A stretch of DNA of 64,000 nt from Tubulanus polymorphus (taxonomy: Eukaryota; Nemertea; Palaeonemertea; Tubulaniformes; Tubulanidae), in the NCBI RefSeq assembly GCF_964204645.1, contig NC_134025.1, positions 1,617,001 through 1,681,000 of the forward strand, in the 5' to 3' direction. The translations under genes and the position numbers were made by a program. How positions within the stretch are numbered: the stretch's first letter is position 1; every line of letters starts with the position of its first letter. Below are positions 1,477 through 47,550 of this stretch, in pieces. The notes beneath the pieces were generated by a model. The model was not told where the DNA came from. It did no database searches and was given only the letters and a program-made list of their open reading frames with translations.

Positions 1477-1560
1477 GACTTTAGTCTACAGACCGCATTG
1501 TGATTGACGTCATATTTCGTCTAGCCGTTAGTTGGAGACCCAACCATACATAACTATAGT
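1477..1560. repeat. Diverged dispersed repeat containing TGACGTCA (copy 1)
   Basis: The order 'agacc...TGACGTCATA...GTTGG...CCATACATAAC' is shared with 6347-6425, with many substitutions. It is probably an old short transposon or SINE fragment. Its ends are not defined. Confidence 0.4.
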
Positions 1561-2754
1561 AGATAAATGGAGGATTTGTAAATTTCTCGACGCCCAATAC
1601 CACGAATAGCCTCCACTTGAATTACCTCCATTTCATGCATAATTTCTGTAAATGGGAATTCCCTCATTTTCGGTAGGAATTCCCCACCTTTGTTTGTAAT
1701 AGTTATGAATTATGAGATTCGATAAAGTTCGTGTTCATTTTGTTTTTGTAAAATAAACAAGTTTTATATATTTTGTTCCATACAAATTCTTTTTGATAAT
1801 TAGATTTAAGTTCGTTTTTGTAATGAGAACATTTGAATAAGTTGTGATATTCTAGTGCAATTGGTGTCAAGTCTTTGTAGAATAATGCCAATTATTTCGC
1901 TCAATGTAAGTTATTTTGATAGTAACGTTCTTTTTCTATTACTTTGTGTGGTATGACGTGATTGGAGCAAAGCGATGTAATTACATTGTAAAATTTGTTG
2001 TTAACAGTTTTCACATTGCCCTGTACTTACTACATACAGTTTGTACGTTATCCATTGTTCAGTTGCTATATATTTTGCTACGAATCATTATTGAGTAAAA
2101 TAAAAATACATTTTATATGAAAATAATTATTGTTTTTCTCTCACGCTGTTGTTGTTGGAAAGGTTTATGTCGCGTCGACCGAAACTCTTTTGTGTTGTCG
2201 ACATCGTGTTACTAAATACAGAATGTGATTGAAAGGGAGGCTGCGCGTGAGTCTGGGAAACTTCTGAACTCCTTAACACTGCGTATAGACGTATCTAGTA
2301 AAAAAGAATCATCTGATCGAAAATCGGTACTTTCTACTTTAATCATATATTTTTCTAATACTGATGTCGTTGTCAAAGAAGTTTTGTGGCACGCCTACCG
2401 GCACGAAACAGTTCAAATTGCATTCGGTTAATTTAAGGCGTTTCCACAACTTTTTGGGCGTTTCCTGTTGCTTCCGGCTGAAGAGTTTACGCGTCCAGAG
2501 TTTTCTCCTTGAAAAATGTCTTAAGCCACAGGCGAAACATTTTACACATTACGGCATCGTCATTTTTGAGAATACATAAAAGGTGGCATTGATTTTGAAA
2601 TGACCGGCATGAAAATACACAAACTTCACAGACACTTGTAAATCACGATGCAAGTTGTGAATCATAAAATGATATCAGTTTATCAAACTCTTATGGAACT
2701 CCGCAATAATGGGAAACGCTTGTTGCAAGGTGTTGTAAGAGAAATTCATACTAT

Positions 2755-2940
2755 TCCTTCTCCGCTTCCACTCCCTATCTCTCCCTCTTCTCGTCCTCGC
2801 CGCTGTCATTCCCCTTTCCTTATTTCCATCTTGCTCGTTAGTTGGTCATATCTCTACCCTCTTCACATCTCTCTTGCTCTAACTCCCCCATATCTCCCTG
2901 TGCTCTCTCCCATCTCACTCCCCACTCCTTCATCTCACTC
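2755..2940. repeat. C/T-rich low-complexity tract
   Basis: An almost pure pyrimidine stretch on the plus strand (TCTCCCTCTTC-type repeats). The overlapping ORFs here are compositional artefacts. Confidence 0.6.
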
Positions 2941-3052
2941 TCTTATCAAGTAAATCATGATCATGGAATTTCTGCGACTCCGATCCAATATTTCCGTCCG
3001 TCCTCTAACGAAATTATCAGCGTCAAATAAAGTAACAAGTACAAATAAATGA

Positions 3053-3058
3053 TTTATT
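3053..3058 (-). terminator. Candidate distal poly(A) signal for NR4A
   Basis: On the minus strand AATAAA is followed within 30 bases by a T/GT-rich stretch (ATTTATTTGTACTTGTTACT), the usual layout of a metazoan cleavage site. It would give the receptor a 3' UTR of about 2.97 kb. No competing gene lies between here and the stop codon. This is inferred from layout only. Confidence 0.35.
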
Positions 3059-5422: not shown

Positions 5423-5447
5423 CACACAAAATATATATATATATATG
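5423..5447. repeat. CA/TA microsatellite
   Basis: A short (CA)n run passes into (TA)n in the presumed 3' UTR region of NR4A. Confidence 0.7.
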
Positions 5448-6026: not shown

Positions 6027-22426
<16,400 letters not shown>

Positions 22427-22504
22427 TGATAAAACTCCATCGCATCATAAAATGATGCGAGAATTCTCCATTTAACGTAAAACACCAGTGAGAGGGATAC
22501 CCCG

Positions 22505-22531
22505 TGACGTCACCATGACGTAGATCATTGG
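22505..22531 (-). promoter_or_regulatory. CRE/CCAAT promoter of NR4A exon 1b
   Basis: A perfect CRE TGACGTCA (22505-22512), a second CRE-like ATGACGTA (22515-22522) and an inverted CCAAT (ATTGG 22527-22531) lie within 27 bases, 80-105 bases upstream of the exon 1b ATG. No clear TATA box is visible. Confidence 0.5.
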
Positions 22532-23219
22532 CGTATTCCGGGACGACGCAGTACTACACGCGCGATGTGTTCTGTAGAGCCAGTGTCTGCTGTCTATTAC
22601 TGTCTCCGCCCTCATGATGACACAAAACCGGATAAATATAGCATCATGTACGTTATTTCTTTTCCCGCAAATCGATGAATTGACGATAGACTCGTGAAAC
22701 GCTTCGCTTGGTCTCTCTCTCACTCTAATTGAGTAGGCTTCATTCATAAAATCAAAAAGTAAATCCCTAAAAATAAACTGATTTTAGGTAACGAGGAACT
22801 TTCAAATTTCTCTTGGAAACTGCTTGCGTGCGCACCTCACACGTCACTCGGAAAACTTCGCAAATACCCGAATTATAACATTATCCGACGCAACTAATTG
22901 TTGTTGAATATTTTTTTGACATCGTAAAAACCGTTACAAAGATACGTTCACTGCTGTCTACCATGCGGGGTACGCACTGTGAGAGTCGATTTGCACAAAC
23001 GATAACAATTACAGTTGCGAAAATTGGCGTTTGTTTTGTATATAATTGAATAGACTCATATCTCCTATTAAATGAATAATCAAGTCTTGAGTTTTAATGG
23101 TAAATAATGCGTCAGTGGTGGTACAGCAAACGGCTTTGAGATGTCCTTTTCTCCAAATGTATTTATTTATGTGTGTGTATATCTATGTATGTGTTATTAG
23201 TGACAGTATTCATATCTAT

Positions 23220-24304: not shown

Positions 24305-24317
24305 GGGGGGGGGGGGG
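24305..24317 (+). repeat. G13 homopolymer
   Basis: Thirteen G in a row flanked by TTAA and TATTAAGGG. Confidence 0.8.
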
Positions 24318-27300: not shown

Positions 27301-28895
27301 ATTTACTCATCTTTCCAACACCTCTCTTACATACAATTAACTTAACTAATAACTCGTCGAATTCAGCGTTACATCTCCACTCGATTCTCGCGCGATTTCG
27401 ATGCTTTTTTCAAAACTTTCAACATTCTTTAAAACGTTTATCTAAACAAAGGTGAAAACAACTATCAAATGAGGATAATGTTGCTGAATGTTAAGATATA
27501 TCAGAGTGGGAGTGTCCTTAAATGAAGTAATGATAATAGAATAAGAACCCGGAATATAACGGTATTTCAGTAATTCGCGCCATCAATCATGTATGGAATA
27601 CTGGTCACAGCTTTTAAACTTTGACGAAGTTCACCGACATCAGAAACATATTGTCTCCACATTCGTCATAACGACTGTTAACTGTGACCTTTTACTTCGT
27701 TGAAACCACTAACGGCCACTATGACGTGCTGTGACGTCACATGAAGACCTTTGAATCAGGTGATCTATACGACACTAGCCCTTATTCAAATATGATGAAT
27801 TTTCTTCTCATAATTCTCTTCCTCCTTAATGCATATTACATGATTACTTGTTCAGATCTGTATACAGACACACGTAGCTTATAATGAGATACTCGTCTTT
27901 CATTTCATTGAAATTAATAATATAAGTAGCATCGTTCAATATTACTGATGTTTTCTGAGGCTATTTACACGCGAAGTATTCAGTAAAGTGTCAAATCCAC
28001 ATCAGAATGGTTACGGAATTCACAATGGTGTCGACGATGAATCATTATCATTATCTTTCTTATTGTAATTATTTTAGCGATGTAAGAATGCGCCTTATAC
28101 CCCAATATTTTTTGACTGATCCAAATCCTTTCAAATTCAGAGCTTTGATGCAACAGAAAAATGAATATGTATTGAAAGATTTGTATAGGTTTGTTATGAT
28201 AACATTCGCTAAAAGTTTCGGCTATCTGTAATCATACATGTTCCATTTTCCTATTTTTCCTTTCAATTGTAAAACGTTCTTATTGTCATATGTAAATGAC
28301 CTAAGTTTATCGGAAAAAAAGTAAAGTAAGTTAAAGTCACGCGCTTAAATTTGTATCAAACATGACGTTTTGTAAATAGTTACAATATCTAAGGCGACTG
28401 TATGTTACTGTGTTCCATGTCTTACCACAATATTATTGTAGATTTGTTTTGTAGGTTTACGGTTGTAAACGCGTGAATACAGTTGACAAGTCAACGTTAT
28501 TAGAATAAGTCCAGTGCGTTCAGTTAATTACCTATTACAGTAATCATGACAATGCGTCATAACCGTTTGGGGTCGTATTGTCGGTATATTCCATTTTTAG
28601 GTGATTTACGTCAACCGCGGGACTAAGTGGTCACATACATGCAGTAGTTGTAATCTTAACTCCCTACTAATAAACTCTGTAAATATGAAGAAGATCAGCG
28701 ATCATTTTCAAGAAGGATTGTAACGCCGGAACCCGAGATCAAATCATTTTCAGACCCGTAGCGTGATATATGCGTTTTTGATTTAGTTCGAAGTAAACGG
28801 GATCTGGAAAATATTTGCATGATATTGTTGATCAGATAGAAAGACCTCGCAGCGATTTCCATTGTTATCACGAAGGTCTAAACAAATGAACTCGT

Positions 28896-29187
28896 AACCC
28901 TTTCAGTGCATCTACACCGCAGTGCGGTGTATAAATCAGTGATGGATTTTGCTAGTACACCGCACTGCGGTGTATTGATGTAATTAGTAATTTGTAATTA
29001 TCTCTATTGAAAAATGGCAGCAAGTGTCAAACATAGTGAAATACTAGTAACTAATGATACGCCGCACCGCGGTGTAGACGCACTATAGTGGTATTCCCGT
29101 TATTCAAAACACTAGGGTGGAATTTTTTAGAATTTTCAAATTTTCTCCAGCACTATAGGGTATTAATTAGTCAGCACTGAAAGGGTT
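28896..29187. mobile_element. piggyBac-like MITE with internal palindromes
   Basis: Perfect 14-bp inverted ends AACCCTTTCAGTGC (28896-28909) and GCACTGAAAGGGTT (29174-29187) bound a 292-bp non-coding element. Ends reading CCCTTT next to TTAA-like flanks (GTAA left, TTTTAA right) fit piggyBac-type MITEs. Inside are three 19-bp near-palindromes: 28913-28931, 28956-28974 and 29058-29076. No transposase is present. Confidence 0.65.
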
Positions 29188-31168
29188 TTAACATGTATCA
29201 TACGTTATAATGACGTTTCTGCTTTTCAGTTCTATCTTTGATAAAAACGAATGGAACTAATTTTTTTGCGCTACTCGGACCAGATTATAACGATAGCAAG
29301 TCTGATCACTGAATTCGCACCCAGTTTTTCGATTACATTATTTTTCAGATATGTTCTTATTTTCCGGCCGATCCTGCTTAAAATTATTTCCAAAGTGGTA
29401 ATCATTTATTCTCATAGAAACAGATCGAGTTTATTCAGATAATTTAAACTGTCTGCGTCTAGTGCACATTCAAATAACACGTTATTTTCTTTGATTTTCG
29501 CGAGCAGATTTTTATTACTTTGTATCACGTCATAAATACCTAGAACTGTGAACATTAGGATGAAAAATCGTATCTATTCCTGTGAATACTGAATTATAGA
29601 AACAGCGCGTATTAGACTTACTCGAATATAACATAAATATTAAAAAAAACAGAATGTAAAAAGTAGAATAATCTTCGCGCATGATCGAATTAAAAGCACG
29701 TAGGTACGTTGATATTATGATCCGTTGTCGTGGATATTAGATTTCCCAGTCAAATGTTGATAGAAACACTGCCAATTTTCTAAATAAAGTGTAAAATATC
29801 GTCTGAACGTTTATCTATTATGATTCTAAGTATATACGACGATCACACGAAGGTGTTATTCATCCACGATGCAGCATCATTTCAGTTTTATTTTATATAG
29901 TTGTGTTGCGTCAAAAGCGAATTTTGAAAACTCCCTAAATACAGATTTAAGACACGAAGTAGCGATGTTTCATTAGAGACCATCGTCAGTGAGATTCCGA
30001 AATGTCTTTAAGATTGTTGAATTCCGTTTTATAATGTTGAATTTGTACATATTGGAGTTTCAATTATATCGTCTATTCATCGCGTTTCAATTGTTGCTAT
30101 TCTACAAGACTTATAGATCATTTGAAATAACTTTCAAACGAGATGTTCACGCCCCTGTAAATATATCCGCAAGTGTGATATGGTTTCTTGTGCTTATTGC
30201 TTCAATTTTGGTTTAAACTCTGACATTTTCAGTATAGTCCTAATTTTCGTCACTATGATAACACAAGCAAGGAACTGGAGCCGTTTAGCGAGCGAATGGT
30301 CAGACTGATAGATGAACATATGTAATTCATTTTGAAATAAGCACCGTAATATTATCTAATATATCAAAAAGTGATGGGCAACTAATGATGTAAAAATTAA
30401 TGGTTCACATCGAATTCGATGATGAACATTACGATCTAAATGATTATGGGACCAAACTTCTTACAGATTACGGATTTAGTGTAAGTTGTAATAAATTAGA
30501 AATCATAGTTTGTATTTTACCCCCGTCGAATTAGAAAAAATAGTCACATCCTCCATGTTTCACCGGGGACCCAGTTCCACAGTTCAGCGTTCAATCGTAA
30601 GTTTTTTAATTGGGGAAAACTGAAAATGAATTGATTTCAATGAAACTTAACAGTCGATATGAAACTATGGTCCAGATACCCATTGTCTTAATGTGTGATT
30701 TTAAGTATTTCTGCTTTGTAAAATAGATTCCCTAAATTGTAGATGAGTGAAATCATTTTATCATTGAGCAGCATATCAAAAATGCATTCAAAGAATTTTT
30801 GGAATTTTACGAGGAATTTGTAGTAATTTTTCTCCACGAAAACTCTATTATTTCCATAGAATAAAAGACGAATGATGAAAGTTCATTCCAAAAAGACGTG
30901 GGCGCAACATCAGTCAATATAAACCAGTTAACTTCTTTCAAATTACATTGAAAATGAACGCATAATGTGAAATCTGAACTCCCACATTCGATAGCATTTA
31001 ATCAACGCATCATTTGAACAATATTTTTTTATATACCATAAGAAAAATATTCAGATATGAACTGTTCGCACACGGAAGTAGAGACAAATAAAACTTGATA
31101 AAAGATTATGTTCTCATCAAATAATATTATTCATAATTTGTGGTGCCTTCGATAACGTAAATATTTAC
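29188..31168. other. Non-coding DNA
   Basis: 2 kb of AT-rich sequence. It contains only a left-end fragment of fold-back family A at 30567-30650. No gene is supported. Confidence 0.6.
30567..30650. repeat. Left-end fragment of fold-back family A
   Basis: Begins GGACCCAGTTCCACAGTTCA and continues to GAAAATGAATTGATTTCAAT, matching one terminus and the internal block of the 41071-41180 element. The right terminus is not found. Confidence 0.5.
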
Positions 31169-31330
31169 CTGGTTTTTCGTCCATGGTCATCAACCCCAAT
31201 AATCGTGTAATATCCAATTTCATTCGCTCGTACGTTCAGTATTTCACACTTCTGATTAGTTCTCATTGTCATTATTATTTCGGATTTGGTCGCAACCAGT
31301 TTCGATTTCAGTTTAAGAGTTTCCATGATT
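31169..31330 (-). CDS. Possible orphan exon with weak Ig-like (I-set) signature
   Basis: A 162-base open segment lies between acceptor TTCATCTGTGTGTAG and donor ACCAG|GTAAAT, both good, and would be a symmetrical phase 2-2 exon. It encodes ILNVRANEIGYYTIIGVDDH then GRKT. This resembles the I-set ending L.I.NV...D.G.Y.C...N..G, but Ile stands where the conserved Cys should be and Glu where Asp is usual. No partner exons were found. It may be a pseudo-exon or chance. Confidence 0.25.
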
Positions 31331-33479
31331 CTACACACAGATGAAACCATTGAAATGACTACGCGAGGTGGTACAATTTCTTAGAAATTAGGACGCGCGC
31401 CTGCTAAGCCTAAGAGTTTTTGGAATAACTGCGAGGAACGTGTGGGTAAATTTGTGAAATTGATAGTATATACCAGGCTGTTTGACCTTTTCACGCGGGG
31501 GCCTTTATCAAATGCCTTGTTATTTACTTCTAGATGGAAAATGTTATGACCTATCGAGAATGGGTTGAGAACATAGGGGTTGACTGCAGTTACTAACATT
31601 CACAAATATCACCGTAGCTTTGAACTTTAGTTTGAACTTTTCATCGTCCTTTCATTAATACTTCGTACTTCAAGAAAAAGTTCCCTGCCTTCAGAGTTCT
31701 GTGTGGAGGGTAGGAGTCACTTGACGCCGAGTCGCAATAGGAGAGATATACAAAATAAAACTTCGAAGACGGCGGAACTATTTTGGCTTCTGTTCAAACG
31801 GTGACTTCGGACAAAAAAGTGTCAAGTCGATCTGTTTTTCGCAGAGCTTTATTTTGGCTTCGTTGCTTTTAATTTTAGAATAAATCAAAAGTTATCGATC
31901 ATTTATAAATATACGTCATAGCGCGCGATAAAGTATCGTAATTGGTAAATGATAGGCTAAAATTGAACTCGTATTTTTAAGAACTTTATTTGAATTCTGA
32001 ACGGTTATGTCGTCATGATAGATCAGTGACGTCAGAAGTAAAGGAACACCTATTGTCTTTGATATTAGTTGAAAGTGAATGTAGGGATATTGAATATACT
32101 TATATCTACAGGAAAGATAGAATTGATTTGTGCTGGTAGCAATAATATTATAATTTCTGAAGCGAGATACTGCCGGCCCTGGATGGTGATTTATCCGATG
32201 AACGAAAATAAAGTCAATATTGCGAAAAATTTCGAATAGAAATACTTCAAATGATCATTAATACAAATATATGAATGACATTTTTTTTTCTTCGTCGCAA
32301 ATTCCGGGGAAAGCGGGTGGCGCTCGTTTGAGTTCAAACTCGAGTATTCGTGTTAACACGCCTGGTATAGGTAATCCATTGTCCGATACGAAAACCTTTA
32401 GAATTATACAAATTCTTTCTAACGTAACAGAATACGGTGTTTGCAGCAAATCCAAAAACTGAATAGATTAACATAATAAATTAACATTACTCTAGAAGAG
32501 CAGATAGTTCATGATGCTTTCAATCAATCAGTGGGGATGCCACACAGGACCGTGTTTAAGTCCCCACCCATCTTTCAAAATGATGAAACAGCGATTCAAC
32601 CACACGATATATTTCATAAGAACGTTTTGTTATAAAAGTTATACATAGAATAACAGTTTGATAACACTGAAGTATTTTTCAAATTGTTCTCTCTGTCCGA
32701 GTTTTATTAATGAAAATATATGTTAGTTAGTAATGTAAACAGATTCGTATGTCCCTCTTGATACCGCTTTTTACTTTGACGAGATAAATGATCAGACTTA
32801 AGAAAAGCTAATAATTTCCGAAATCGTAAGATCGTCTGTTAGACTGTGACTTGATAGTTACTAACTACGCAAAATCTGTGTCCACGTATCGGTAACCCTA
32901 TATTACAGCGTGTGAGCCGATAGGCGGTGAGATGTTAACTTAAAAACTATCTGCTCATCCTTTTTCATGTGTCCTTGATGAGTAATTGTTTATCGCGTTA
33001 GTCACCTTAGGTTAGGTTACATAGGTTACATTGTTTTCTCACTGCACGGCAGGTGCTTTTAGAGTCGATTTTGGCAGATGATATTCGAAAAGCGTGTTTG
33101 TTTTTTTTTTAGAGGTCTTATTCTTAAAGTAAGTTGTTTATTGATTACGCTAGTTTTCGTTTATTTATAATGGTTGGTTTGGTGTTTGTTGTGTATCCAT
33201 TGCGAGTAACCTTGCCAAAAATGAGCATCCACTTCAATTCCAACAGGTTGGTTAATTCAGTTTTTTTTCTATATCCTCCGATAAAGTTTTATCCCATTGC
33301 TAGATAAATGCGATAGTTGAAAACCTATGAGATTGAAGGTTTATTGAGACCAAAACGTTAAGGTTGTCTCCTAAGAGCAATCATCTTGGGGAATGAAAAG
33401 AAAAAGGTTAGTTTTGTGTATTTGATAATCTTAAATGAAATGTGTATAAAAAAGTCACAATAATACAAGTATAACATTG

Positions 33480-33560
33480 TCGCCGATTCACAAAATCCAA
33501 GATAGATTGTTTAGTTAAAGTCCCGGAGTAAAATGAATAACACAAGTAATAATACTGATT
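33480..33560. repeat. Dispersed repeat, copy 1
   Basis: Shares ATCCAAGATAGATTGTTTAG, AGTCCCGGAG and GTAATAATACTGATT in the same order with 36945-37055. Confidence 0.5.
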
Positions 33561-34286
33561 ATTGGCGGATTATAAGGCAATTTAGGGATGGTGATGATAT
33601 ATTCCCAGTCTCAATAAACCTTTTAATTGCATATACACCTTTTTCTTCTAGTCTATTTTATTCACATGTTTTCCTGATTAAAAGTTTCAATAACGCGTCG
33701 GACTGCGTTTACAAAAGGATTATGAAGATAGTGAACGTATTTCAAAGTCGTATTTCCTTCCAAATCTAAAACCCTAAATCACTTTGAAATCAACCTTAAG
33801 ACCAGCTATATGATCGTTTATGAACTAGACTTGGTTCTAGATTGAATCAGGCCGATCACGATGATATGGGGCCTATACATCAACATCGTAACACAACCTT
33901 CAGAGAATAACATAAATTCATTGCAAACACAGCACAGAAATCAGTTATCACTGATAGTTTAAGGATGAAATCTTCGAGTAACAGTCAGAATATATGGACC
34001 GGAAGTCTTTGAATATCGATATCCGTATGTAGGTCAACAGTATGTTTAGATACAGTGTGAAGACCGGGCGCGCACTCGACGACATTTAGTGCAGTCAAAA
34101 TCAATGCAATAATTACCACATAGAACTGTGAGAAATAATACCAAATAGTTACCTACCATCAACCGGGTCGGTCCTGCTGATTGGTACCGATTTCGTCTTC
34201 CTCATTGACCTATGACCACGTGTGCTAACGAATGATTCAAGTGGTTTCTCCAGGCACGCCACCTCCATCTTGAATTTCAGTTCGAA

Positions 34287-34317
34287 ATCCAAATCTCGTC
34301 GGCGACGAGATTTGGAT
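34287..34317. repeat. Perfect 14-bp inverted repeat with 3-base loop
   Basis: Arms ATCCAAATCTCGTC and GACGAGATTTGGAT are exactly complementary around GGC. It would form a stable hairpin. There is no surrounding gene. Confidence 0.85.
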
Positions 34318-36944
34318 GGTCGGCACAGTCACGGCGTCGATGGATACGGGCATGTATTTCATACATATGCGATATTAACAATTCCAAAATATAGGATTAT
34401 TTCGAGGAAATCTATTCGTTTAAAACGTCGTTGGGTGCCGGGGGTCCAATTGTAACTAGCAGACCCCAGAGAACACGAATCAATCAAAACCGTTTTGTTT
34501 ATAAAGATACCGAATTTTAATTATCGTTAACCTAAGAAATCCACGGATTCCAAAAGCGTTTCTAAACGGTAGTTCTTGTTGTTTATCCGACGAGTCAACG
34601 TTCAGAAATTGCCAAAGAAAGGTCGACCATGTCTATCTATCTATTGAACATTTTGTTTATATGGAATTCCAATTCTGGGTATTATTTTTCTAAGATTAAT
34701 TCAAAATGTCACTCGGTGTAATTTCTAGCCACCTAGCGGTCGTCAGGAAATTCATCAATGAATATTGGATTTTAGACCACGTGACCGTTTTTCTAGGAAA
34801 CTACGTATTTGAAAAAGAAGTTTATCTAAAAGCGCCAATATGACGGTGAAATGTCACCATAAACCAAAAAACTGATTTTTGAGTACTTACATGAATGTAA
34901 CATTGATCATTATGTTAATCCACCAATAAACAAGAATAATCCATATCGCGATGAAGAAACAGCGAATTGTTAGAAAATGTGAAATAATCTATAATAAACT
35001 AATTAAGATTATCGCAGATTAGCATAAATCCATATTTAGATAAATTGCGTCCACTGTTTCGGGCGACGCGAAACATTGGACGCAACGATTGGAAAATGAA
35101 AACTTCCGAACGCGGGAATTTAAAATCCGTCCGAGTTCCTTTCGCTTTTTGGATCAATTTAAACAGTGACGATCCGGAGTAAATGAAAGCGCTGCCGCTC
35201 AGATTGGCCTGCATATCCAGAATAACTATTTTACAGAGTACCCGAGGAATTGAGACACGTATCACGTGGTCAGAGGGAATATTATTTCATTTAACAGCGT
35301 TCAATAGAGACTCTGACAAAACTTCGTCACAGCGCGCGTATGTGACGTCAATGCTACTATTAATAGCCATCAGTAGAGCTAAATGTGCAAAAGTAGCGCT
35401 ATGTACAGAGCATCACTGACTACGCCAGCAGCAGTGTGGCCCTTTAGCATCTGCAGCATTGATGGAAATGAAGTCTTTTTACCTAAAAATATTTTCCATA
35501 ATCATTACCGGGAACTAGCACAATACGCATTCAGTTGGGAAGGTAATTTTCTAGGGATCCGACCGGCCTGAATGAATTGATGTTACTTTCCGTCTGAAAG
35601 TTCAAATGGTCCGGGATACCTTCACTACTATACTAGGCTTTTTACAAGAGAGCGAAAATAATCGATTGTACTCAAATCGAGCGGTCAATATAATGTATTC
35701 TATATATAGTAACTATATTCAATAGAATGTCGAGAGAAATCTATCACAGAACGTAAGATTATCTGCGATAGCGGTTGTGAAACATCGAACGAAAATCTTT
35801 CATTTTTCTAAATTGCTTTTTAGAACTTATATTCACTAAGATTTTTAGCTAAAGACACGTTACTAGGTTTATCTAAAGAAAGTGAAAGCATATTCAACCA
35901 TAATTCACAAACACCTTGTTTGAACTCAGACCTTCAAAATTCTAGGAAATCGTACGAGATCTTTTGGTATTCAAAATTTCACCGAATACTTAAAACATTT
36001 CCTGAAAATGATAATTTATTTTCATAATTTTTATTGAAATACGCAAATGTAGATATATGAAATGAAAAAAAATCAATAAGTGATTTATTTATAGTCGATT
36101 CAACGCATGATACGAACATGATTAGAGGTGGTTTTCAACTAGAGATTTAACACGTATCGAACCGTTCCGGTTTAGTGTAACCATGCTGTTTTTAGTAACG
36201 CGTCATTCTCAAGCGATTTCGTTCATTGATTTTGCAGTAAAACCGCGCCGCAAAACTTTTATCATCAGCATAAAATCCAACGACGTCACGATGGAAATTT
36301 ATACCATACTAGTGACGTCGATTTGTTTTTATCATTACTTATATATATGTATGTATTTGTAGGAGTAATAAAATCTTCTTTTGTTTTGTTATGTTTTTAA
36401 ATTCATTGTCGTTTTGGGTTTGGATTTGTTGCGATGCTTCTGCGTAGAGAGCGTGCGGTACTAGCCGTGTCATGTCAGATGTACGTATGTTCAATGTTTA
36501 AACAATCCGTTCTCGTATAGTTTGACAAATGTGTCTGCTATCTATTGCGTCACTGCCGACAAACTAAAAGTATCTTTCGACGTGCGTGACGTCACATCGG
36601 TATCAGGTTGGATCGAAAGTAACAATCCATGCCAGTGACGTCACATTTCGGGAGACGTTGATGTAATGAAAAGTGCCACATCAGATTGTCTTAATCTTGC
36701 GTTCGTTTGTAAAATATTCATGAATGAATTAAACGTTAAAAAGGCGTTTTTCCTACGTAAATTGTCAATCAGCATCGCTTACTGGCAGTTTACTGACGAA
36801 ATTCACGTCATTGATTACCTGCTGACTACATACAGGTCATAAGTATGTTTTCTATGTGCTGATTCCTGGGCAGATTAATACCGTTCGTTCGACAATCTGA
36901 AATCAAATGACGCTATATCGACGAGTCGCAATGATACCAGCTTA

Positions 36945-37055
36945 AGATTGTCGGGGATTCAAATCCAAAATAGATTGTCTAGTTGAAGTCCCGAAGAAAA
37001 AAGTTGACGTTCCGAAGAAAAAAGAAAAACTTGGTAATAATACTGATTCCATAAA
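36945..37055. repeat. Dispersed repeat, copy 2
   Basis: Same order of blocks as 33480-33560, with an extra duplicated CGAAGAAAAAAG segment (GTCCCGAAGAAAAAAG and GTTCCGAAGAAAAAAG). Confidence 0.5.
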
Positions 37056-39071
37056 TGTCTAATGTGTTCAAAATCAATTATTGATAATTGAACTAGAATT
37101 AATGATATCAAGTGTAATAGAATTCTGAGTGTCTTATTTGAGAAATATGAACTAGATTTTTAAGTTGTTTATTCTGAACTGTTCGTTGGTCTAACGTATA
37201 GGGATCTGAGACGATGTTTCAGTGTGATTTAAACCCTCGAGGTGGCAAAGAAAAATAATTACAACGGTTCGCGAATTAATCAGTTGTAACAACCTTGGGT
37301 AGAGCTACATGCGTCTGCCGGGTATGAGGGCCGCAATTCCTCCACAGCCATCCATCCATTATGAACGGACGAAAAAACTGGAAATTAGAAAAGAAAAAAG
37401 TCGAAAAATTAAATTCATTAAAAATGAATTTCTCGGATAGTAGTACGATAACCACACTCAAACGTGGTGAACAGATGATAAGATAAAATTACTATTAATT
37501 TTTCGGATAGTTTTTGAGCGCTGTTTGCATCCGAGGTCAACTCTATATCTAAAATAGTTAGAAATGAATCAATTTCAACTGAAAGTGAAATTCAGTCAAG
37601 AACCGTGGGATCCATCCCATTATTCATTTCTCCTGTTAGTCATACAGTGTCTTGTCATATCAACCAAATTGACAATTAAATATGATAACTAATGAGGTGT
37701 TAATTAATTTTCTTTAATCTATCACTATCCATCAGAATCGTCGCATGTCTAAGATAGTTCAACGTACGTAGGGATGGTTTTAATCTGTGTAGACAGACCC
37801 GTCTTATGAGCTGTCTTTCGAGGATCTGAATTCTTGATAATCTTCCTTCTCTGCAATTTGGCCGTCTGTCTTGCGCTTATAATAAAATCCCAGGACAGCA
37901 TTAACTGAACTGTTGCGTATGTTGCCTAGATCGGTGAACTTGTTTTCAACGCCATCTGGTGGAAACGTTACGAACCGTCATAGATCTACTTTCAAATTGC
38001 CTCCCACCAGATATGATGTTGCTAAATAAAGCGCCTGCGCTGGATCGATACCATTGCGTGTAACCCCGGAGATAATTCCATCAGGACATCCCCATTTCGT
38101 ATCGGAAATGACGCAGGGAATCTCCATTTTCGGTCTCTTACGTCATAACTGGTTATTTATAGTATATTGCGGCTGGGTGTAGCGCAAAGCTGATCATTGA
38201 AAATAACAAGGCTTGATGCGTTAGCTAATAGAATTTATCGATTTCCCGGGGCATTCTACCTCGGCAACAACGCACGTAGCAGCAACAGCTAACGCAAACT
38301 CGCTGCTGAATATAGAAGAAGGTTTAAATCAATTGCGACAGCAGGTTATTCTTACTGACGCCATGAGTTTTACACGAGTACCAATAACTACCAATTATCA
38401 ACGGTACTAAAATTATATTCGCAAATGACCAACAACTTGCAAATGACGACAAACGTCACGCACTAATGACGTAGCGATAGAAATGTCATTTAGGTAACCC
38501 CCATCGTGACGTAATAGCTTCGCGTGTTATACTTTTTATCTAATTACTTAATCCAAATGAGCCGGGTTTCCACGGGTAACCTTTTCAATGAACAAACACG
38601 GTCGAATGATATTCAACACTTTTGAAATGAATTCAAGGCAAATCGTGCGTCAATTTCTGGGTAAATGTAAATTTCAAGGAAACAGCTCAGCTTACTGTAC
38701 GGACGTGATGGTTGTCGTTTATAAATCACAAACCACATCATAATCCGATATCGAATCCAAGAAATACAGGTGTCCAACCTAGAATAAGGAACATTGTGAT
38801 TCAGCTGAAAACTTTGAACTGAAGAAAATGGAAAACTACCGAAACAATTCTATGAAAATATCCTCGAATTAGACATCAATCTTCTTCGATTCAAAATGTC
38901 AATACACCCGAGAAATAAGCGCAGAAATTCATGTTCATTTCTGATCACTTGTTATCGGAAATTCGACCAACCATATGATTCTAGGGAAATCAACACGTCA
39001 GAGGCTGCAGTTGCTCAAACGGTTAACGGTTAACCTTTGCGATGAATTTGGGATTAGCTTTTATTTCACCT

Positions 39072-39370
39072 GGACCCCATTCCGCAGTTCTGGACAAAGT
39101 TCTGGAAACAGTTCCGCAGTTCTGGAGACATTTCCACAGTTCTAGAGACAGTTCCGCAGTTCTAGAAACAGTTCCGCAGTTGTGGAGACATTTCCACAGT
39201 TCTGGAGACATTTCCACAGTTCTAGAAACAGTTCCGCAGTTCTGGAGACATTTCCACAGTTCTGGACACAGTTCTACACTCGGTTCCAAAGTTATGAGTT
39301 CAGATTTGACTCATGCATCGAAAATGAACCAATATCAACTCAGAGTTAACTCACAATGTGGAACCGGTCC
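39072..39370. mobile_element. Fold-back family A element expanded by a 20-bp VNTR
   Basis: Starts GGACCCCATTCCGCAGTTCT and ends CACAATGTGGAACCGGTCC, the inverted ends of family A. The right half (GATTTGACTCATGCATCGAA... ACTCAGAGTTAACTCAC) matches the intact 41071-41180 copy. The left arm is amplified into 20-bp units. Confidence 0.6.
39080..39271. repeat. 20-bp VNTR inside the fold-back element
   Basis: Nine full units plus one 12-base partial. They alternate TTCCGCAGTTCTGGAGACAT, TTCCACAGTTCTAGAGACAG and close variants. The unit is the element's own terminal sequence. ORFs on both strands here are by-products. Confidence 0.85.
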
Positions 39371-41070
39371 TGCCTATGGTTTTTTATGATTTTGATATTT
39401 TCTACTATTTTTCAACATAATTTACAGAATTATTTGAACAAATTGGTATATATATGTAAATTTTGTAACACCATCAACGTATCATTTGTCAATCATGGCC
39501 AGATGTCTTAAACTATTGACAAATTACACCACCAATCACCGTTCCAATGGTCATCTATCATTACTGGTGCTAGATTTTAGATTTACAGTATTGTTATGGT
39601 ATCTCGGTTGGATTTATGTTTGTAGAAATATTGCAGTATCCTCTGTAATATTTTTGTTATATCACTGTTGAATATTGTATTTAGCTTAAACTCGCTCATC
39701 CTAAAGCCGATCACTGCGCGTGACGTATACAAATAGGTCACATGGAAACTGACCGGTAGTGATACTCTATGTAATTGTAGAAAATGGTTTTAAACCAGTT
39801 TATGCTGATTGTTTATCTTCTTCTTACGTCGATTCAGTCTACAACAACCTGTGTTCGATAAAACATTGTATTTTTTCATCAAACTGCGATGAAATGTTGT
39901 AAAATTCTAAATATTGTGTGATTAATTTTGTGAAATTGGCTCAAGCAGAAATGTTTAGATTGACCATTCATGGCGCGTGTACTCAAAGCCGAAGCTGTAA
40001 AAGTTCGCCACATTTTCTCTGCAGCACAAAACTGGCAATATTTGTGTATAAATCCTGTGTCATACAAATACCCATCAATATACACAAAAAGTCTATATTC
40101 ATTAAAAAGCATCACAAACTTTTATTTGTAGCAAGAAATATACAATACCAGCGTCAAAAAATGCATTAAAAGCAACAGCGTTGGTTTTAGTTAACTGGAA
40201 ATCCACCAGATGTCGTTCGAAGATGAGAAGATACTCCTGATCGATTTATAAGAAACGATAGAAATAAGTTCATCTATGCTATAAACATTCATTGACTGAC
40301 AGAAATATCATCATAAACTGCATAATTCTTTTGTAAGCGAACTGATAACAACGAAGCCAATTTTTGAAACTTTAGAAACCCGACGTCATTCAGGGATCTG
40401 GATGTTAAATACACTTTTATCAATTAGAACACATTGCGTCGTTTTTTGTTTGTCCAGAAATTTCATCGGAAAATTTCTAAAAAATTAGATCATTGTATAT
40501 ATCAGAAAACGTTTTTAATAGTAAATGTCACTATGATTATATTTAGAACTTGAAAACCTGTTTGGCTCAGACAGTCTTTACTATTAGCTACGCTTACGTA
40601 CATTCCATCTAGGTTTGGTTTACATTGACGTAAACTTTTACGGATTTCACCTGGGTTTTTTCTAGCATGAAACAAAAAGATTCCAGGGTTAATAGTAAGT
40701 GCCAGAACTACTGAAATACGTAGACAGAATACAAAAATCACTCAGACAGGTGTCTATTACGTTTAGAGACCCACCTCCAGGAATCCCCGTCGGGAACTAC
40801 TTTCAAGATGGCGTCTGGCCGGAAATAACGTGCGTATGTAAGACTTAAGATTAATGATGATTGGCGGTAGTGACGTCATTGCTACCAGGGTATCCCGGCC
40901 GTTCCGTGCGTTAGTTAAACGCGGTGAAAACATTCAGTATATATAGATTACTAAAAATACCCCTTTTTCTTATTTCGTCATCGCACGTTCTTCCGATCAT
41001 CGAACCTTATCCGAATTCTTGTACCGAATGTTAAGTGAATTAATGAAAATCTCCTGCTTCGTTATCATCA
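39371..41070. other. Non-coding DNA
   Basis: 1.7 kb without a supported gene. Contains a CRE octamer at 40871-40878. ORFs of 60-83 codons overlap on both strands without recognisable features. Confidence 0.6.
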
Positions 41071-41180
41071 GGGTCCAGTTCCACAGTTCTGAGTTAAGAT
41101 TTGACCCTGGGTTAAAACATCGAAAATGAACTAACTTTAACTCAGAGTTAACACTAACTCACAACTGTGGAACTGGGTCC
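41071..41180. mobile_element. Intact short fold-back element, family A
   Basis: 110 bp between GGGTCCAGTTCCACAGTTCT and ACAACTGTGGAACTGGGTCC. The whole element is nearly a palindrome, with the internal pair GTTAAAAC / TTAACTCAGAGTTAA. It is non-coding. It is the type copy for fragments at 7805, 20641, 30567 and 39072. Confidence 0.65.
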
Positions 41181-41642
41181 AGGTTTTTTAATGTACGTTT
41201 ATTCAATACATTTTAGCCAATCTAGTACCTTAGCAATGGGGCATATCACATAATTTAATGAGCATCAAAAGAAAAACATCGGAATCTCAATTTTGAAGAT
41301 ACACAGAACGAACTTATGAATTTAAACTTGTTTTATTATTTGACATCAGTTCAATATTTCTTATCTAACCGTTAGAATTTCAGAGCGATTTGACATTTTA
41401 AGGGGGTGGGCATCACCTTCACCTCCTCCCAATGGATCCACCCCTGCACCTGACGGTGGTCTCTAGAGAGAGTCCAAAACATCTTTTTATTTTGATCTTA
41501 CGTTTTGATGAATAATTGTCGTTTTTAATCATTTCAATTCGTATATAGCGGGTTGGTTTACAATTTGGTTGCATTTGACGCAGATGATGATTATATCACA
41601 GATTTACTATTGGTGAAACAAATATTACCTGTTGCATCTACG

Positions 41643-42145
41643 GTAGCGGCAGTGGCATTGGCAGGGGCAGTGGCAGTGGCAGGAGCAGGAGCAGCGGCAG
41701 GAGCTGTGGCAGGAGCAGCAGCAGCGGCAGGAGCAGGAGCTTTGGTAGTGGCAGCGGCAGGAGCAGGAGCAGTGGCAGGAGCAGGAGCAGCGGCAGGAGC
41801 TGTGGCAGGAGCAGCAGCAGCGGCAGGAGCAGGAGCTTTGGTAGGAGCAGCGGCAGGAGCAGAAGCAGTGGTAGGAGCAGCGGCAGGAGCAGGAGCTTTG
41901 GTAGTGGCAGTGGCAGGATCCGGAGTAGTGGCAGGAGCAGAGGCAGGAGCAGTGGCAGGAGCAGTGGCAGTGGCAGTGGCAGTAGCAGGAGCGGCAGTGG
42001 CAGGAGCGACAGTAGCAAGAGCAGCGGCAGGAGCTGTGGCAGCGGCAGGAGCTGTGGTAGGAGCAGGAGCAGGAGCAGTGGCAGGAGCAGGAGCAGGAGC
42101 AGTGGCAGGAGCTGTGGCAGGAGGAGCAGGAGGAGCAGGAACAGT
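41643..42145. repeat. GC-rich hexanucleotide minisatellite (GCAGGA/GCAGTG)
   Basis: Five hundred bases of GCAGGA, GCAGTG and GCAGCG units in shuffled order, including a longer internal duplication (about 41683-41745 and 41776-41838). The lack of stop-forming triplets leaves long ORFs on both strands (203 and 202 codons), coding only Ala/Gly/Val or Leu/Pro. I read it as a repeat, not a gene; an Ala/Gly-rich fibrous protein is a remote alternative. Confidence 0.8.
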
Positions 42146-42372
42146 TTCCTGTTTGCGACGATAAACAATTTTAACGAGAGTTGCGTGTCCAGAATGACAT
42201 GACGTAATGACACCGATTCTGCTTTTAATGAATAATGAAAACTCAACTCAAGTAATTGTCAACAAATTGTTTTGTCTTGTTCAAATCTATGACGCAGAAA
42301 TATAAAATGTATTTATAGACCTAATATAAACGACTCGTAATATTGAGGATTGAAATTGTCTTGATTTGCTAA

Positions 42373-42403
42373 ACCATGGACTCTTCGTTTTAGAGTCCAT
42401 GGT
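42373..42403. repeat. Perfect 12-bp hairpin
   Basis: Arms ACCATGGACTCT and AGAGTCCATGGT are exactly complementary around a 7-base loop TCGTTTT. Confidence 0.85.
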
Positions 42404-42626
42404 CGAAATCATCAATGCTGACCTTTCATTTCAAGTAATGCAAATGACGTCACAGCGTCACAGGCCAATATGACAACGTGTGGCGTTCCATGCATTACAG
42501 CTATACACAACAGAATAAACAGTTGATTCAAATTATTTTACATATTTTACATATATGGATTTAGTAATATTAAAATTTCTTCAATCATTTTCTGAATAAG
42601 AACGTGCAATTCTTTAGCTGTTTAAA

Positions 42627-42697
42627 TGACCAGAGCGGGATTCGAACCCACGACCTCCGTACTATCGCACGGTGCTCTACCGCAGAGCTTTCAAGTC
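42627..42697 (-). repeat. tRNA pseudogene or SINE head
   Basis: A 71-base minus-strand cloverleaf can be drawn. Acceptor GACTTGA/TCTGGTC has 6 of 7 pairs; the D arm GCTC-TGCGGTA-GAGC is perfect. The anticodon stem CCGTG/TACGG encloses only six loop bases, and T arm GTGGG-TTCGAAT-CCCGC pairs. The 6-base anticodon loop and acceptor mismatch argue against a working tRNA. No anticodon can be assigned. Confidence 0.5.
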
Positions 42698-43130
42698 TGA
42701 TACGTCAGCGAAAGAATGCGCAAATCTCTTCAGATTCAAGAAATTATATACCCAACCACCCGACGGTGTTTTAGATTCCCAATTATACATCTATTATCAT
42801 TAATGATGTCATTTCAAAACTTTACATTTTAACTGGAGAAATCTGAATATATATTTAGTATTGCATATCAAAATATGGGTCTTATCGATCAAGATTTCAA
42901 TACGAGCTTCTGATCGGGATTTAGCTCTTCATGATTAACACATATCAACAGGAAATTTATGAATTTAACTTATTCATTTCTCCATTCATAGAAAATCAAA
43001 TTAACCCAGATGTCAGTTGAGTTTTTCCGACTTCTCTTGAGCGCCCATGAATAAATTTTTTGTAAGGGGAAAGTGTCGTACACATCGTGTAGAAGACCCT
43101 CCGCTAAAAACAAGTCGGAAACCCTTTTAT

Positions 43131-43389
43131 TTCCCTGATTCTAAACTCGGTGTAATATCTACAGCAGTCTAAACGCTACCGAGTTCCCTGATTCTCAACT
43201 CGGTGAAATATTTACAGCAGTCTCAACTCTACCGAGTTCCCTGATTCTCAACTCGGTGAAATATTTACAGCAGTCTAAACGCTACCGAGTTCCCTGATTC
43301 TCAACTCGATGAAATATTTACAGCAGTCTCAACGCTACCGAGTTCCCTGATTCTCAACTCGGTGAAATATTTACAGCAGTCTCAACGCC
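43131..43389. repeat. 53-bp tandem repeat, 4.9 copies
   Basis: Units start at 43131, 43184, 43237, 43290 and 43343 with TTCCCTGATTCTCAACTCGG and end GCTACCGAG. CTCGGT and ACCGAG make an inverted pair within and between units. Units differ by one to a few bases. Confidence 0.9.
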
Positions 43390-43825
43390 ACTGTAGTTAT
43401 AGTTCACTGTATATATGTATACGTAAAAATAAGATATGTATGAAGAGAAAAGTATATATTATGAAAAAGTCATTAGTTCAATAATTGGTTTCTATTCGGT
43501 ATCGGATTTATATATAGTCACATGCATGCGATTACTCTCACCTTGGAGTATAGACTCCAAGTTATCCAATTAGCGCGCCGAGTATCCCGAACTGGAAAAA
43601 CAAATAATCCGTCCACACGCATAATACAAACTATATCCGATACTGATAATCCGGTAATCCTCTTAAATCTCGGCACAGATTATGAAATAAATCCGACGCA
43701 TCATTCTGTAATAAACTTATCCAAGTGTCGCAATTTTCACCGATTTTTTCTTATACGAAAATTAATTCAACAACTGCGAAACGTTTTTGTTTAAATCTCA
43801 TGTGCTCTTTATTTCGTTTCATTTA

Positions 43826-43859
43826 GTTGTGGTTGTTGTTGTTGTTGGTTGTTGTTGTT
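43826..43859. repeat. GTT microsatellite
   Basis: GTTGTGGTTGTTGTTGTTGT-type run. Confidence 0.8.
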
Positions 43860-46084
43860 AGGACGAGTTTGTTAATATTCGGTAGAATGCATACGGAGTA
43901 TATCCTTCATAACGTCTTCCTTCAGGAGCGTATAACTAAGAAATAATCAGATTGTAGCATTTCACCGACTGAAATATCCACGAGTTTTACGTCAGCCAGG
44001 CAAGCGGTTTCTAATTTTGACATCGGTCCAGAAAACTGGTTTGATGGTATACAATGAGTGGCAAATACCAGCCTTGAACGACCTTTCAGTATCGAATAGG
44101 TTAAAAACGTGTGCAGGGTACCTGTGAATACAACAAACGCAAATAAGTTAAGTTATGCCAGCCCTGTTGAAACCGCTGACGTAGGTGGAATGCGCATAAA
44201 ACGTGAAAGTATCGCAAGCTTCCGCGCCAAGCTTTAGAACACGCTGAATATACGTCAGTGCTACGTCAATAGCTCTATGGAAACGTAGCGTAAGAACGCT
44301 GGAATGACGCAAACGGCCGCAGCTCAACGCCAAGATCAATTCAGCCCCTGTGATTTAAGCGTTAGGGTGGTATTAAAACCGCAATTTGATCGGAAATTAC
44401 GTAGGTTGTTCTGAGATCCAGGGGTTACTCGTTTTATCAGGGGTCGCCATTTGTTGCGACAAGACAAAATGCGGGTCCCAATCAAACTTTCGTCCAAGTC
44501 ATATTAATTTTTGAATGTAGATTTGTATGTTTTTGTACAACACGAACAAAGTATAGAAATTCAGATGAACTCTACGGACGGTCACTGAGGCAATATTTTG
44601 AGAAATCATTTTAATAATGAATGTAGGTAAATATTATAATATAGATCTAAATCAAGAGAAATTGATCGCTTCGTTTAAAAAACAAACCTAGTTTTCCATC
44701 GTCCACGAGTGGAATACAATTTGCGTAACTTACCGATATTATCTTTCCGACCGTGTAGAAATTTCCAGGGTAAGATATCCATTTGAAAATCGGTTTTTCT
44801 CAATTACGATTATCGAATTATATCACAATCGGTGAACGGAAGCACAGATAACGGAAGGTTTAGGCGATAGATAGTAATCTGTTTCATCACGCAACAGAAT
44901 GATTATAATTCCTGCTACTTTGCCCCAACATTCTTTAATTCTCGCATGAAAATGAAAATATTCTTGCAGTGATATTTTTAGATGATAGAAAAGAACATGA
45001 AATAAATGAAACATTTCGAGCTGAAATTTACCTGGTTTCTGTTGTATAGTCCTGTAACGAGTTTGGTCCATTAGAGAGAAGTGCTACTGGGAGAGAAGTG
45101 TTTTCAGTCTATATGTTGTACGGCGTTGTAATCTGTACATTTGACCTTTACATGAGAACGGTTTCAGTGACGACATACCGAGGTAATATCGCGCCCCGTC
45201 ATTTTATTGAAACATTCAGATGATTTTATACACAGGGACGGCGTTGATAATTCTAGCCGCCATTTCGTGTGCATTATATATCATAATCACAAGAAGCGAT
45301 ACAAACTACAATCGTTATTTCAAACACCTAACGTTAATTTTTAAAGAGAAATTTTTTCCAATTCAAACGCTAGAGAAGCCTTTCTTAGCTTGCAAATAGC
45401 AAACCAGCACCATATGAATAACTTGTCATTGTTAATCTACGATTATGTTAGCAATTTGCCCGAACATTTCTAAATGACAATCAATTAGATATCCATCGCG
45501 AAGCCATTGATCACAAGTAAAAAATGATTTTGAAATCGATCACAGATTTTAGTTCTCCATCTATTCAAAATGTCAAACTGTATACGTCAGATTGTGCACC
45601 ACCGTGCCGAGATGTCATAAATCAACAATCGCAATGAAGAGGCCACACGAAGATTCATATTACTGTACATTCTGCGTATAATGACTATTAGAATAATAGT
45701 GGGAACGTCGAATTAACTATGAACATTTCAGACTCTGTGTATATGTACTGTGTATTTCTTGTATGGGATTTTATATTATGCTTAGAACACGGACTCACGG
45801 CTCTTCATCAGAGGTTAACATTTATATTCAGCGTATCGCGAATATGCATCACAGCAATGTTTGTTCATTGCCTCCGTTATTTCGGCGATAATGCCAGAGG
45901 TCACGTTTTTACGTTTATTGATAGCTATTTCAGTATGATTCGAATCGATTCGTGTTCGAAAATAGAAAACACGTTAAATTACCTTCGTAGTGATCGATAT
46001 TATTGAGCAAATATTTAGCTTTAATTCTGTGCTCATGAAACTAGAATTTGAAAAGATAACAAAAATACGAAGAATCTAAATGGG

Positions 46085-46800
46085 TATTATAATCCTGGAG
46101 TCAGTTGCACCAGTCACACGCCGTTAAATCAAAGCCTAATGTCTAAATCAGGTCGCACCAAAATCCGATCCGATCGTCTGCTATTCGGTCTTAAGAACAC
46201 ACTTATCTCACGTCGCGAGGTCGAGTCGCCGAATCGGCCTTGAATCGTTTGTCGGATCTTAGCTATACTCAGGTCACCTGGTCCATGATCGTTTCGAACC
46301 AAATGCTTATGGCACGTGATGTATACATCGCTATTAGACAAGAAGATGGCTAGTAGTTGTTAGCCGAAACGTCGCTCTTCAAATATAATCATTCTGATAT
46401 AGAATTTTTCAATCTTGGCTTCGTTATTTCGGGATTTCTCTCGGCATCGCTATTCATTGGCTACGACCTTACAATCGGTCGTAAGTTCACTCCGGACACA
46501 TTCCATACGACTGAGTCCGATCTTAAGCTTAGACCAGTCTACGACCATTCTACTTCTTTGGCCGATTTTAGAGACAAGTCTTAAGATTGGATGACACTTT
46601 TAATTTTGCTTAGACTTAAGATCAGTCTAAAACCTTCTTAGTTTCACAGCCAAACTAACAGCTAAGGACCGGTTTTTAGATTTAAGATCGATTTGGGACA
46701 CCCTGGACTTAAGTCCGTGGTCTTGAATCTTAAGACTGAGATTGGTCTTTAGTTGTTAGATTGGCTATAGACCAGGATGGTCTTGGACTGGTCTTATGTT
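46085..46800. repeat. Diverged fold-back repeat rich in CTTAAG
   Basis: Starts near CAGTTGCACCAGTCACACG and runs to GGTCTTGGACTGGTCTTATG. It contains many CTTAAG palindromes and repeated AGACCAGTCT / AGACTGAGATTGGTCT blocks in both orientations. TTGTTAGATTGGCTAT near the right end occurs reverse-complemented at 6465-6480. Probably an old MITE-like element with nested copies. Confidence 0.45.
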
Positions 46801-47550
46801 TATTTCCTTTGGCCTCTGGTTTATTTCTCGGCGGTTGGGTAGTTATCTGACCTCCCTCACATATGAGTAAGAGACATTTCGAATGGCATTCAGTGGGTTG
46901 AAGGATTTAAAAAGATGAATTACGTTCAAAAACATTTCTAGTACGTTGATGCATTCAAAGACGTCATGAATGAAAACTATGTTTCTACTATTACCGTGAT
47001 ATTCATATGTCATCCGTGACGTCACCACATCTCATATTGATTATAAACTGTCTAGATTTAGGTTTGTTTCTTCTTTTCTCAAAATCAGTTTGACTAATTG
47101 ACGAGCGAACCTGCAGTTTTAAATGTCAATATCTGTTTGAAGACAAATAAGAAAAGATAAATGTTTTGTTAGATTGTTTACGCATTAAGGCAAAGTTGTT
47201 GTTGTCATGTATATTAGTATTTATATTGATATTTGTATTCATCTACACCTCAAGGAAACTCAAACCTTTTCACAATGACATGTGTATGACGTCACAGTTA
47301 TATTCCTTATATAGATAGATACGTCACGAGGTTTCATTTCTGATCAATGTATGAAACCTTTTTTCATGTCATTGTTTGGTTTTTGCTTAGAATGTCGTGA
47401 AGAGTAAATGTATGATACCTCGAGGTGAACTGAACAGCCCTCTCGACACAACTAACGCAATTCATACGCGTAGGTTTTATCTCCATCTAACGTTTAAACT
47501 ATGAAACGTATGTAAAACCATCACAGATTCGATAATCCGTGTCGAACTAC
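46801..47550. other. Non-coding DNA before the tandem duplication
   Basis: No supported gene. Two CRE octamers at 47017-47024 and 47287-47294 are the last in the window. Confidence 0.6.

What the first reader, a model, noticed from the sequence alone, without database searches (positions are those of the whole stretch)
1505..47294. Perfect CRE octamer TGACGTCA about 30-fold over-represented
I counted 20 perfect TGACGTCA sites, starting at 1505, 6372, 7269, 10209, 10998, 11033, 11973, 13950, 18196, 22505, 23854, 27732, 32027, 35343, 36587, 36636, 40871, 42445, 47017 and 47287. At about 35% GC fewer than one is expected in 64 kb. Many are part of GTGACGTCAC. Flanking sequences differ, so one repeat family does not explain most of them. 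None occurs in the last 16.7 kb (GPCRs, LINE). Either a transposon family spreads the site, or the region is rich in CREB/ATF elements, or the octamer is frequent genome-wide for another reason.
Basis: partly seen in the sequence, partly recalled or inferred. Interest (0 to 1): 0.62.

Follow-up and report, generated by a model that had tools for sequence, protein, structure and literature searches.

The report
CREB-site array beside an NR4A gene
The 20 exact cAMP-response elements are real and lie mostly in about 38 kb of DNA without recognisable genes, upstream of the animal's only NR4A gene, a classic CREB-switched gene; this looks like an unusually large CREB-responsive control region, but its function is untested.

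Summary
All 20 TGACGTCA sites exist at the stated positions (0.97 expected from dinucleotide shuffles). The genome (268 Mb) is itself moderately rich in the octamer: 13,221 copies, 2.7 times a dinucleotide-identical control palindrome. The window still holds 6.3 times the genome average. Exons at 6.0-9.7 kb on the minus strand encode the genome's single NR4A (Nurr1/HR38) nuclear receptor. Seventeen of the sites lie in the next ~38 kb upstream, which has no Pfam domain in any frame. That stretch has 9 times the genome density of full sites and 3.7 times the density of other TGACGT half-sites, and CRE words are its top-enriched words at lengths 5 to 8. Sites carry RTGACGTCAY flanks, and no site lay in a repeat found by the genome comparisons. 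Fos-like and Jun loci are not enriched. NR4A genes are established CREB targets in mammals, with CrebB binding reported in flies, so the best reading is a dispersed homotypic CREB/ATF site array controlling NR4A. Function, conservation and promoter position are untested. In an overdispersed genome 0.2-3 such windows could arise by chance clustering. New member of a known kind.

The parts
6030..9707 (-). NR4A (NR4A2/HR38-type) orphan nuclear receptor gene, coding exons known so far: 9707-9571 (putative start ATG 9591), from 9161 (AF1), 8316-7990 (zinc-finger DBD), 7659-7447 (hinge), 7308-7078 (LBD), 6278-6033 (LBD end); exon edges approximate except 9571 and 9161
   Evidence: zf-C4 5e-31 and Hormone_recep matches (read-through check); best solved relatives NR4A2 2e-41, NR4A1, HR38; only NR4A in the genome; splice signals read
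9708..48250 (.). About 38.5 kb between the NR4A coding exons and the first GPCR gene, without any Pfam domain; holds 17 full CREs and 48 other TGACGT/ACGTCA half-sites
   Evidence: Six-frame Pfam scan empty, same method finds the neighbouring NR4A exons; counts; word enrichment
10209..10216 (+). CRE TGACGTCA, 618 bp upstream of the putative NR4A ATG; TATAAAT word at 10252 (minus strand) a little further upstream
10998..11040 (+). Pair of CREs 35 bp apart (10998, 11033)
11973..11980 (+). CRE TGACGTCA
13950..13957 (+). CRE TGACGTCA
18196..18203 (+). CRE TGACGTCA
22505..22512 (+). CRE, GTGACGTCAC form
23854..23861 (+). CRE TGACGTCA
27732..27739 (+). CRE, GTGACGTCAC form
32027..32034 (+). CRE TGACGTCA
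35343..35350 (+). CRE TGACGTCA
36587..36643 (+). Pair of GTGACGTCAC sites 49 bp apart (36587, 36636) in a short diverged local duplication (74% over 31 bp)
40871..40878 (+). CRE TGACGTCA
42445..42452 (+). CRE TGACGTCA
47017..47024 (+). CRE, GTGACGTCAC form; about 1.3 kb from the GPCR gene as well
47287..47294 (+). CRE TGACGTCA, last of the array
6372..6379 (+). CRE within the NR4A gene, between LBD exon segments (probable intron); about 100 bp of flank 63% alike to that of 1505
7269..7276 (+). CRE octamer inside an NR4A LBD coding exon (7078-7308), codes for NR4A residues
1505..1512 (+). CRE downstream of NR4A; flank is a diverged copy of that at 6372

Best explanation
The cluster is a dispersed homotypic array of CREB/ATF binding sites that forms the regulatory domain of the NR4A gene. 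CREB sits on the full and half sites in the promoter and in ~38 kb of upstream (partly perhaps intronic) DNA; when cAMP or Ca2+ rises, phospho-CREB with its coactivators switches NR4A on as an immediate-early gene. Shown: the sites, their excess over genome and matched controls, the identity and uniqueness of NR4A, absence of other recognisable genes, a CREB-type bZIP gene in the genome. Inferred: binding, which gene is controlled, induction, the role of the distal sites.
For: NR4A identity and uniqueness. 17 full CREs in 38.3 kb = 9.0x genome density (Poisson 1.5e-11 over 37 kb), and 48 half-sites not part of full sites = 3.7x (5e-14). At word lengths 5, 6, 7 and 8 the top-enriched word against other loci is CRE or its part (ACGTCA 4.6x, p~1e-27), whereas the control TGTCGACA is absent and other motifs (AP-1, SRF, E-box, ETS) are not raised. 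RTGACGTCAY flanks on 13/20 (genome 66%; reversed control 27.6%). The listed RTGACGTCAY positions show a focal cluster: 13 in 41 kb here, 5 in the preceding 190 kb. Sites not in the repeats found. A CREB-type bZIP exon is present. Literature: mouse Nr4a1 and Nr4a2 each have six CREs within 3 kb and are CREB/CRTC1-induced (PMC5740062; PMC12471074); fly Hr38 is activity-induced, with CrebB ChIP peaks over its accessible TSS (PMC12572301).
Against: No expression, chromatin or cross-species data are available here. The Fos-like (30 kb) and Jun (20 kb) loci carry 0 and 1 full CREs, so CRE arrays are not a rule for immediate-early genes in this animal. Sites cluster elsewhere in the genome, partly in tandem repeats, and overdispersion alone could give 0.2-3 such windows. 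One of the 20 sites is inside coding sequence and one lies downstream of the gene. The transcription start is not located. Recognition of NR4A as a CREB target came after the cluster was found.
Confidence: 0.6

Rival explanations
1. Chance clustering on a genome-wide CRE excess: the octamer is common in this animal's regulatory DNA, and a long stretch with few genes happened to accumulate many, without a special tie to NR4A.
For: Genome-wide 2.7x over a dinucleotide-matched palindrome and RTGACGTCAY bias; overdispersed counts, other clusters on C1 such as 13 in 64 kb; 0.24-3.4 windows of >=20 expected genome-wide.
Against: Density is far above neighbours (5 full sites in 50 kb of flanks) and above loci fetched by gene family (0.026 per kb); half-sites and words of every length agree; the cluster lies beside NR4A.
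Confidence: 0.22
2. The array, or its right end, serves the divergent GPCR genes starting near 48.3 kb rather than NR4A.
For: The two genes are divergent and share the interval; sites 47017 and 47287 are about 1 kb from the GPCR; the array stops at 47.3 kb.
Against: The nearest and densest promoter-side sites are at NR4A (five in 10.2-14 kb); the duplicate GPCR copy (96% over 1,245 bp) has no CRE upstream.
Confidence: 0.08
3. A transposon or repeat family spread the site.
For: Sites 1505 and 6372 have related flanks (63% over 100 bp); elsewhere in the genome CREs do occur in tandem arrays.
Against: Flank self-comparison finds no family. Genome comparisons of 9.7-18.7 kb and 29.25-38.95 kb find repeats only away from the sites (16.1 kb, 37.4 kb); the 295-bp high-copy repeat at 28.9-29.2 kb holds no CRE. 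Searches rank only the best candidates, so old, diverged repeats are not excluded.
Confidence: 0.05
4. A local mutational bias or CpG retention produces TGACGTCA-like words without selection.
For: CpG observed/expected is 1.25 in the region, while the left flank is 0.62-0.83.
Against: Dinucleotide-identical words are not raised (TGTCGACA 0; TGTCGA/TCGACA 0.31 per kb, as elsewhere); the GPCR part has higher CpG (1.39) and no sites.
Confidence: 0.05

Closest known systems
CRE-containing promoters of mammalian NR4A1/NR4A2 (CREB/CRTC1 targets; PMC5740062, PMC12471074)
   Same: NR4A gene; several full and half CREs upstream; a CREB-type factor exists in the genome; a TATA-like word lies near one CRE
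   Different: Mouse Nr4a1 and Nr4a2 have six CREs each within 3 kb, mostly half-sites; here 17 full sites plus 48 half-sites spread over 38 kb; regulation not shown
Drosophila Hr38 locus (PMC12572301)
   Same: Single invertebrate NR4A gene; there, activity-induced, with CrebB ChIP peaks at the accessible TSS
   Different: In flies the evidence is ChIP/ATAC at the TSS; no CRE array was described in the passages read; here only sequence evidence
Homotypic clusters of transcription-factor binding sites
   Same: Many copies of one motif, focal, not repeat-borne as far as tested
   Different: Such clusters are usually described within enhancers of about a kilobase (own knowledge); this one is sparse (one per ~2 kb) over tens of kilobases

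Membership tests
NR4A nuclear receptor gene | C4 zinc-finger DBD closest to NR4A | tested here: met
   NR4A2 2e-41, NGFI-B 7e-40, next (RXR) 3e-29
NR4A nuclear receptor gene | LBD closest to NR4A/HR38 | tested here: met
   NR4A2 2e-20, HR38 3e-19, next (ERR) 3e-6
CREB-target NR4A regulatory region | Full and half CREs near the gene above background | tested here: met
   9.0x full, 3.7x half
CREB-target NR4A regulatory region | CREs close to the transcription start | tested here: inconclusive
   CRE 618 bp before the putative ATG, but an upstream exon is likely and the start site is unknown
CREB-target NR4A regulatory region | CREB present in the genome | tested here: met
   CREB-type bZIP exon at C10:13633840
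CREB-target NR4A regulatory region | CREB binding and cAMP/Ca2+-induced transcription | not testable with these tools
   needs ChIP, ATAC, RNA
Homotypic binding-site cluster | Focal excess of one motif over matched controls | tested here: met
Homotypic binding-site cluster | Evolutionary retention of sites | not testable with these tools
   no related animal genome is held
Transposon-borne site | Sites lie in copies of one repeat family | tested here: not met
   one pair (1505, 6372) weakly related

The most novel reading that the evidence does not exclude
This animal's single NR4A gene is run by a very long homotypic CREB domain of ~17 full and ~48 half CREs over 38 kb: a graded cAMP/Ca2+ integrator built from one motif, possibly with autoregulation through NBRE sites (5 AAAGGTCA in the region, 0.4 expected from other loci), replacing the compact CRE/TATA promoter known in mammals.
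Probability: 0.3. Interest if true: 0.65.

Novelty: new member of a known kind. Interest (0 to 1): 0.45.

Why it matters
NR4A is among the few immediate-early genes shared by insects and mammals. A long CRE array beside the only NR4A gene of another animal would suggest that the CREB-NR4A link is built into the DNA and can scale in size. It gives a concrete locus for testing how many dispersed CREs set the strength or dynamic range of an activity-regulated gene, and a sequence-only way to look for CREB-target genes in unstudied animals.

Tried and rejected
Transposon spread: flank self-BLAST and three genome comparisons gave no family at the sites. Hidden genes in 9.7-48 kb: six-frame Pfam scan empty, positive control works; codon-score ORF ranking gave nothing convincing there. 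General immediate-early-gene rule: Fos-like and Jun loci not enriched. Helical phasing: pairs 35 and 49 bp apart show no shared phase. Papers on homotypic CREB clusters and on CRE arrays at invertebrate NR4A genes: none found in the held library by the searches made. The organism was not identified.
Full report
Observation. The 20 TGACGTCA sites are at the stated positions, and 100 dinucleotide shuffles of the window give a mean of 0.97 and a maximum of 3. The '30-fold' figure holds against a mononucleotide expectation; against dinucleotides it is about 20-fold, and higher-order models fitted to the window itself, which already contain the excess, predict 1.2 to 5.2.

Genome context. The window lies at C1:1617001-1681000 of a 267.8-Mb, 77-contig animal genome. 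TGACGTCA occurs 13,221 times, i.e. 3.16 per 64 kb. TGTCGACA, a palindrome made of exactly the same dinucleotides, occurs 4,870 times. So the octamer is 2.7-fold in excess genome-wide. Of the genomic sites 66% are RTGACGTCAY, against 27.6% for the reversed control; purine-TGACGTCA-pyrimidine is the flank preference I would expect of CREB/ATF factors (own knowledge). Some genomic copies sit in tandem arrays and some beside ETS-type CCGGAAGT words, a composite known from mammalian promoters (PMC3464117, title and abstract).

Local excess. The window has 6.3 times the genome mean (Poisson 2e-10). The genome is overdispersed: in 22 windows at the start of C1 the mean is 4.3 and the variance 9.9, the densest 64 kb holding 13. 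A negative binomial fitted to that gives 0.24 to 3.4 windows of 20 or more in the whole genome. The window is therefore extreme but not provably unique. The extent is focal: 30 kb to the left hold 2 sites and 20 kb to the right hold 3, and the listed RTGACGTCAY positions show 13 in 41 kb inside the window against 5 in the 190 kb before it.

The gene. Minus-strand exons between 6.0 and 9.7 kb encode a nuclear receptor (zf-C4 5e-31, hormone-receptor LBD) whose closest solved relatives are NR4A2/Nurr1, NR4A1/NGFI-B and fly HR38, well ahead of RXR or ERR. The next best full-length DNA-binding domains in the genome are at most 60% identical, so this is its only NR4A gene as far as the search reaches. 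Reading the strand, an exon 9707-9571 with a putative ATG at 9591 (MLVLQSP) ends in GTAAGA and joins an exon that starts at 9161 after TTTTTGCAG (PGFDSDP...). The reading frame stays open to that exon's acceptor, so at least one exon lies further upstream and the transcription start is unknown.

The array. From 9.7 to 48.2 kb no Pfam domain is found in any of six frames, while the same read-through method recovers the NR4A domains next door; genes without a Pfam domain are not excluded. This interval holds 17 full sites (9.0 times genome density) and 48 further TGACGT/ACGTCA half-sites (3.7 times; Poisson 5e-14). Comparing its words with 163 kb of other loci, the most enriched word is CRE or part of it at k = 5 (CGTCA), 6 (ACGTCA, 81 against 77 in 4.4 times more sequence), 7 (GACGTCA) and 8 (GACGTCAC). 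TGTCGACA is absent, the matched half-word TGTCGA is at background, and AP-1, SRF, ETS and E-box words are not raised; NBRE (AAAGGTCA, the NR4A site) 5 against 0.4 and MEF2 5 against 1.1 are weak leads only, from small counts and many motifs tried.

Not a transposon. Flanks of the 20 sites do not match each other, apart from 1505 and 6372, 63% alike over about 100 bp. Genome comparisons of 9.7-18.7 kb and 29.25-38.95 kb return the locus itself and short repeats that lie away from the sites; the 295-bp high-copy repeat at 28.9-29.2 kb contains none. Those searches score only the best candidates, and 39-48 kb was not searched, so old diverged repeats are not excluded.

Mechanism. NR4A genes are textbook CREB targets: mouse Nr4a1 and Nr4a2 have six CREs each, mostly half-sites, and are induced through CREB and CRTC1 (PMC5740062; PMC12471074). 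Fly Hr38 is activity-induced, with CrebB ChIP peaks over its accessible start site (PMC12572301). This genome has a CREB-type bZIP exon. The most economical reading is that the array is the CREB-responsive regulatory domain of NR4A. What speaks against a general rule is that the Fos-like and Jun loci hold 0 sites in 30 kb and 1 in 20 kb. What remains inferred is binding, induction, the role of the distal sites, and which of the two divergent genes (NR4A or the GPCR at 48.3 kb) is served. Two of the 20 octamers do not fit the upstream array well: 7269 lies in an LBD coding exon, and 1505 lies downstream of the gene.

Verdict. CREB control of NR4A is known; the size of the array is the unusual part and remains to be tested by a full-genome ranking, by sister species and by chromatin data.

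Noticed in passing
window 48160-49397 and 51766-53000: Tandem duplication of a rhodopsin-type GPCR gene (96% identical over 1,245 bp) with a 378-aa ORF without a Pfam match, beta-propeller-like by eye, between the copies (49837-50973); another GPCR at 53901-55007 on the minus strand.
   Followed up: partly
window 58557-62904, minus strand: LINE-type retrotransposon with two long open frames: a zinc-knuckle ORF (506 aa) and an endonuclease/reverse-transcriptase ORF (936 aa), both without stops, so possibly young (named by eye from the sequence).
   Followed up: no
window 28895-29191: High-copy repeat of about 295 bp with at least 38 copies at about 97% identity on many contigs: a recently active, non-CRE element.
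   Followed up: no
window 41552-42222: 12/18-bp minisatellite coding for Gly/Ala/Ser/Arg repeats in several frames; further tandem arrays at 39058-39297 (20 bp) and 43131-43395 (53 bp).
   Followed up: no
window 42627-42697, minus strand: tRNA gene by Rfam (42.6 bits), the only RNA family match in the window, inside the CRE array.
   Followed up: no
G000:C2:30563583-30563800; L013, L016: Tandem arrays built from CREs elsewhere in the genome: a 30-bp unit carrying TGACGTCA on C2, and a 12-bp unit TGACGTCATCCA beside reverse-transcriptase-like ORFs.
   Followed up: no
L012 (C1:14508296) and C2:11969671: CREs fused to ETS-type words (TGACGTCATACCGGAAGTGACGTCA), like the mammalian ETS/CRE promoter composite.
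   Followed up: no
window 9708-48250: Five NBRE words AAAGGTCA against 0.4 expected from other loci, a hint of NR4A autoregulation; small numbers.
   Followed up: partly
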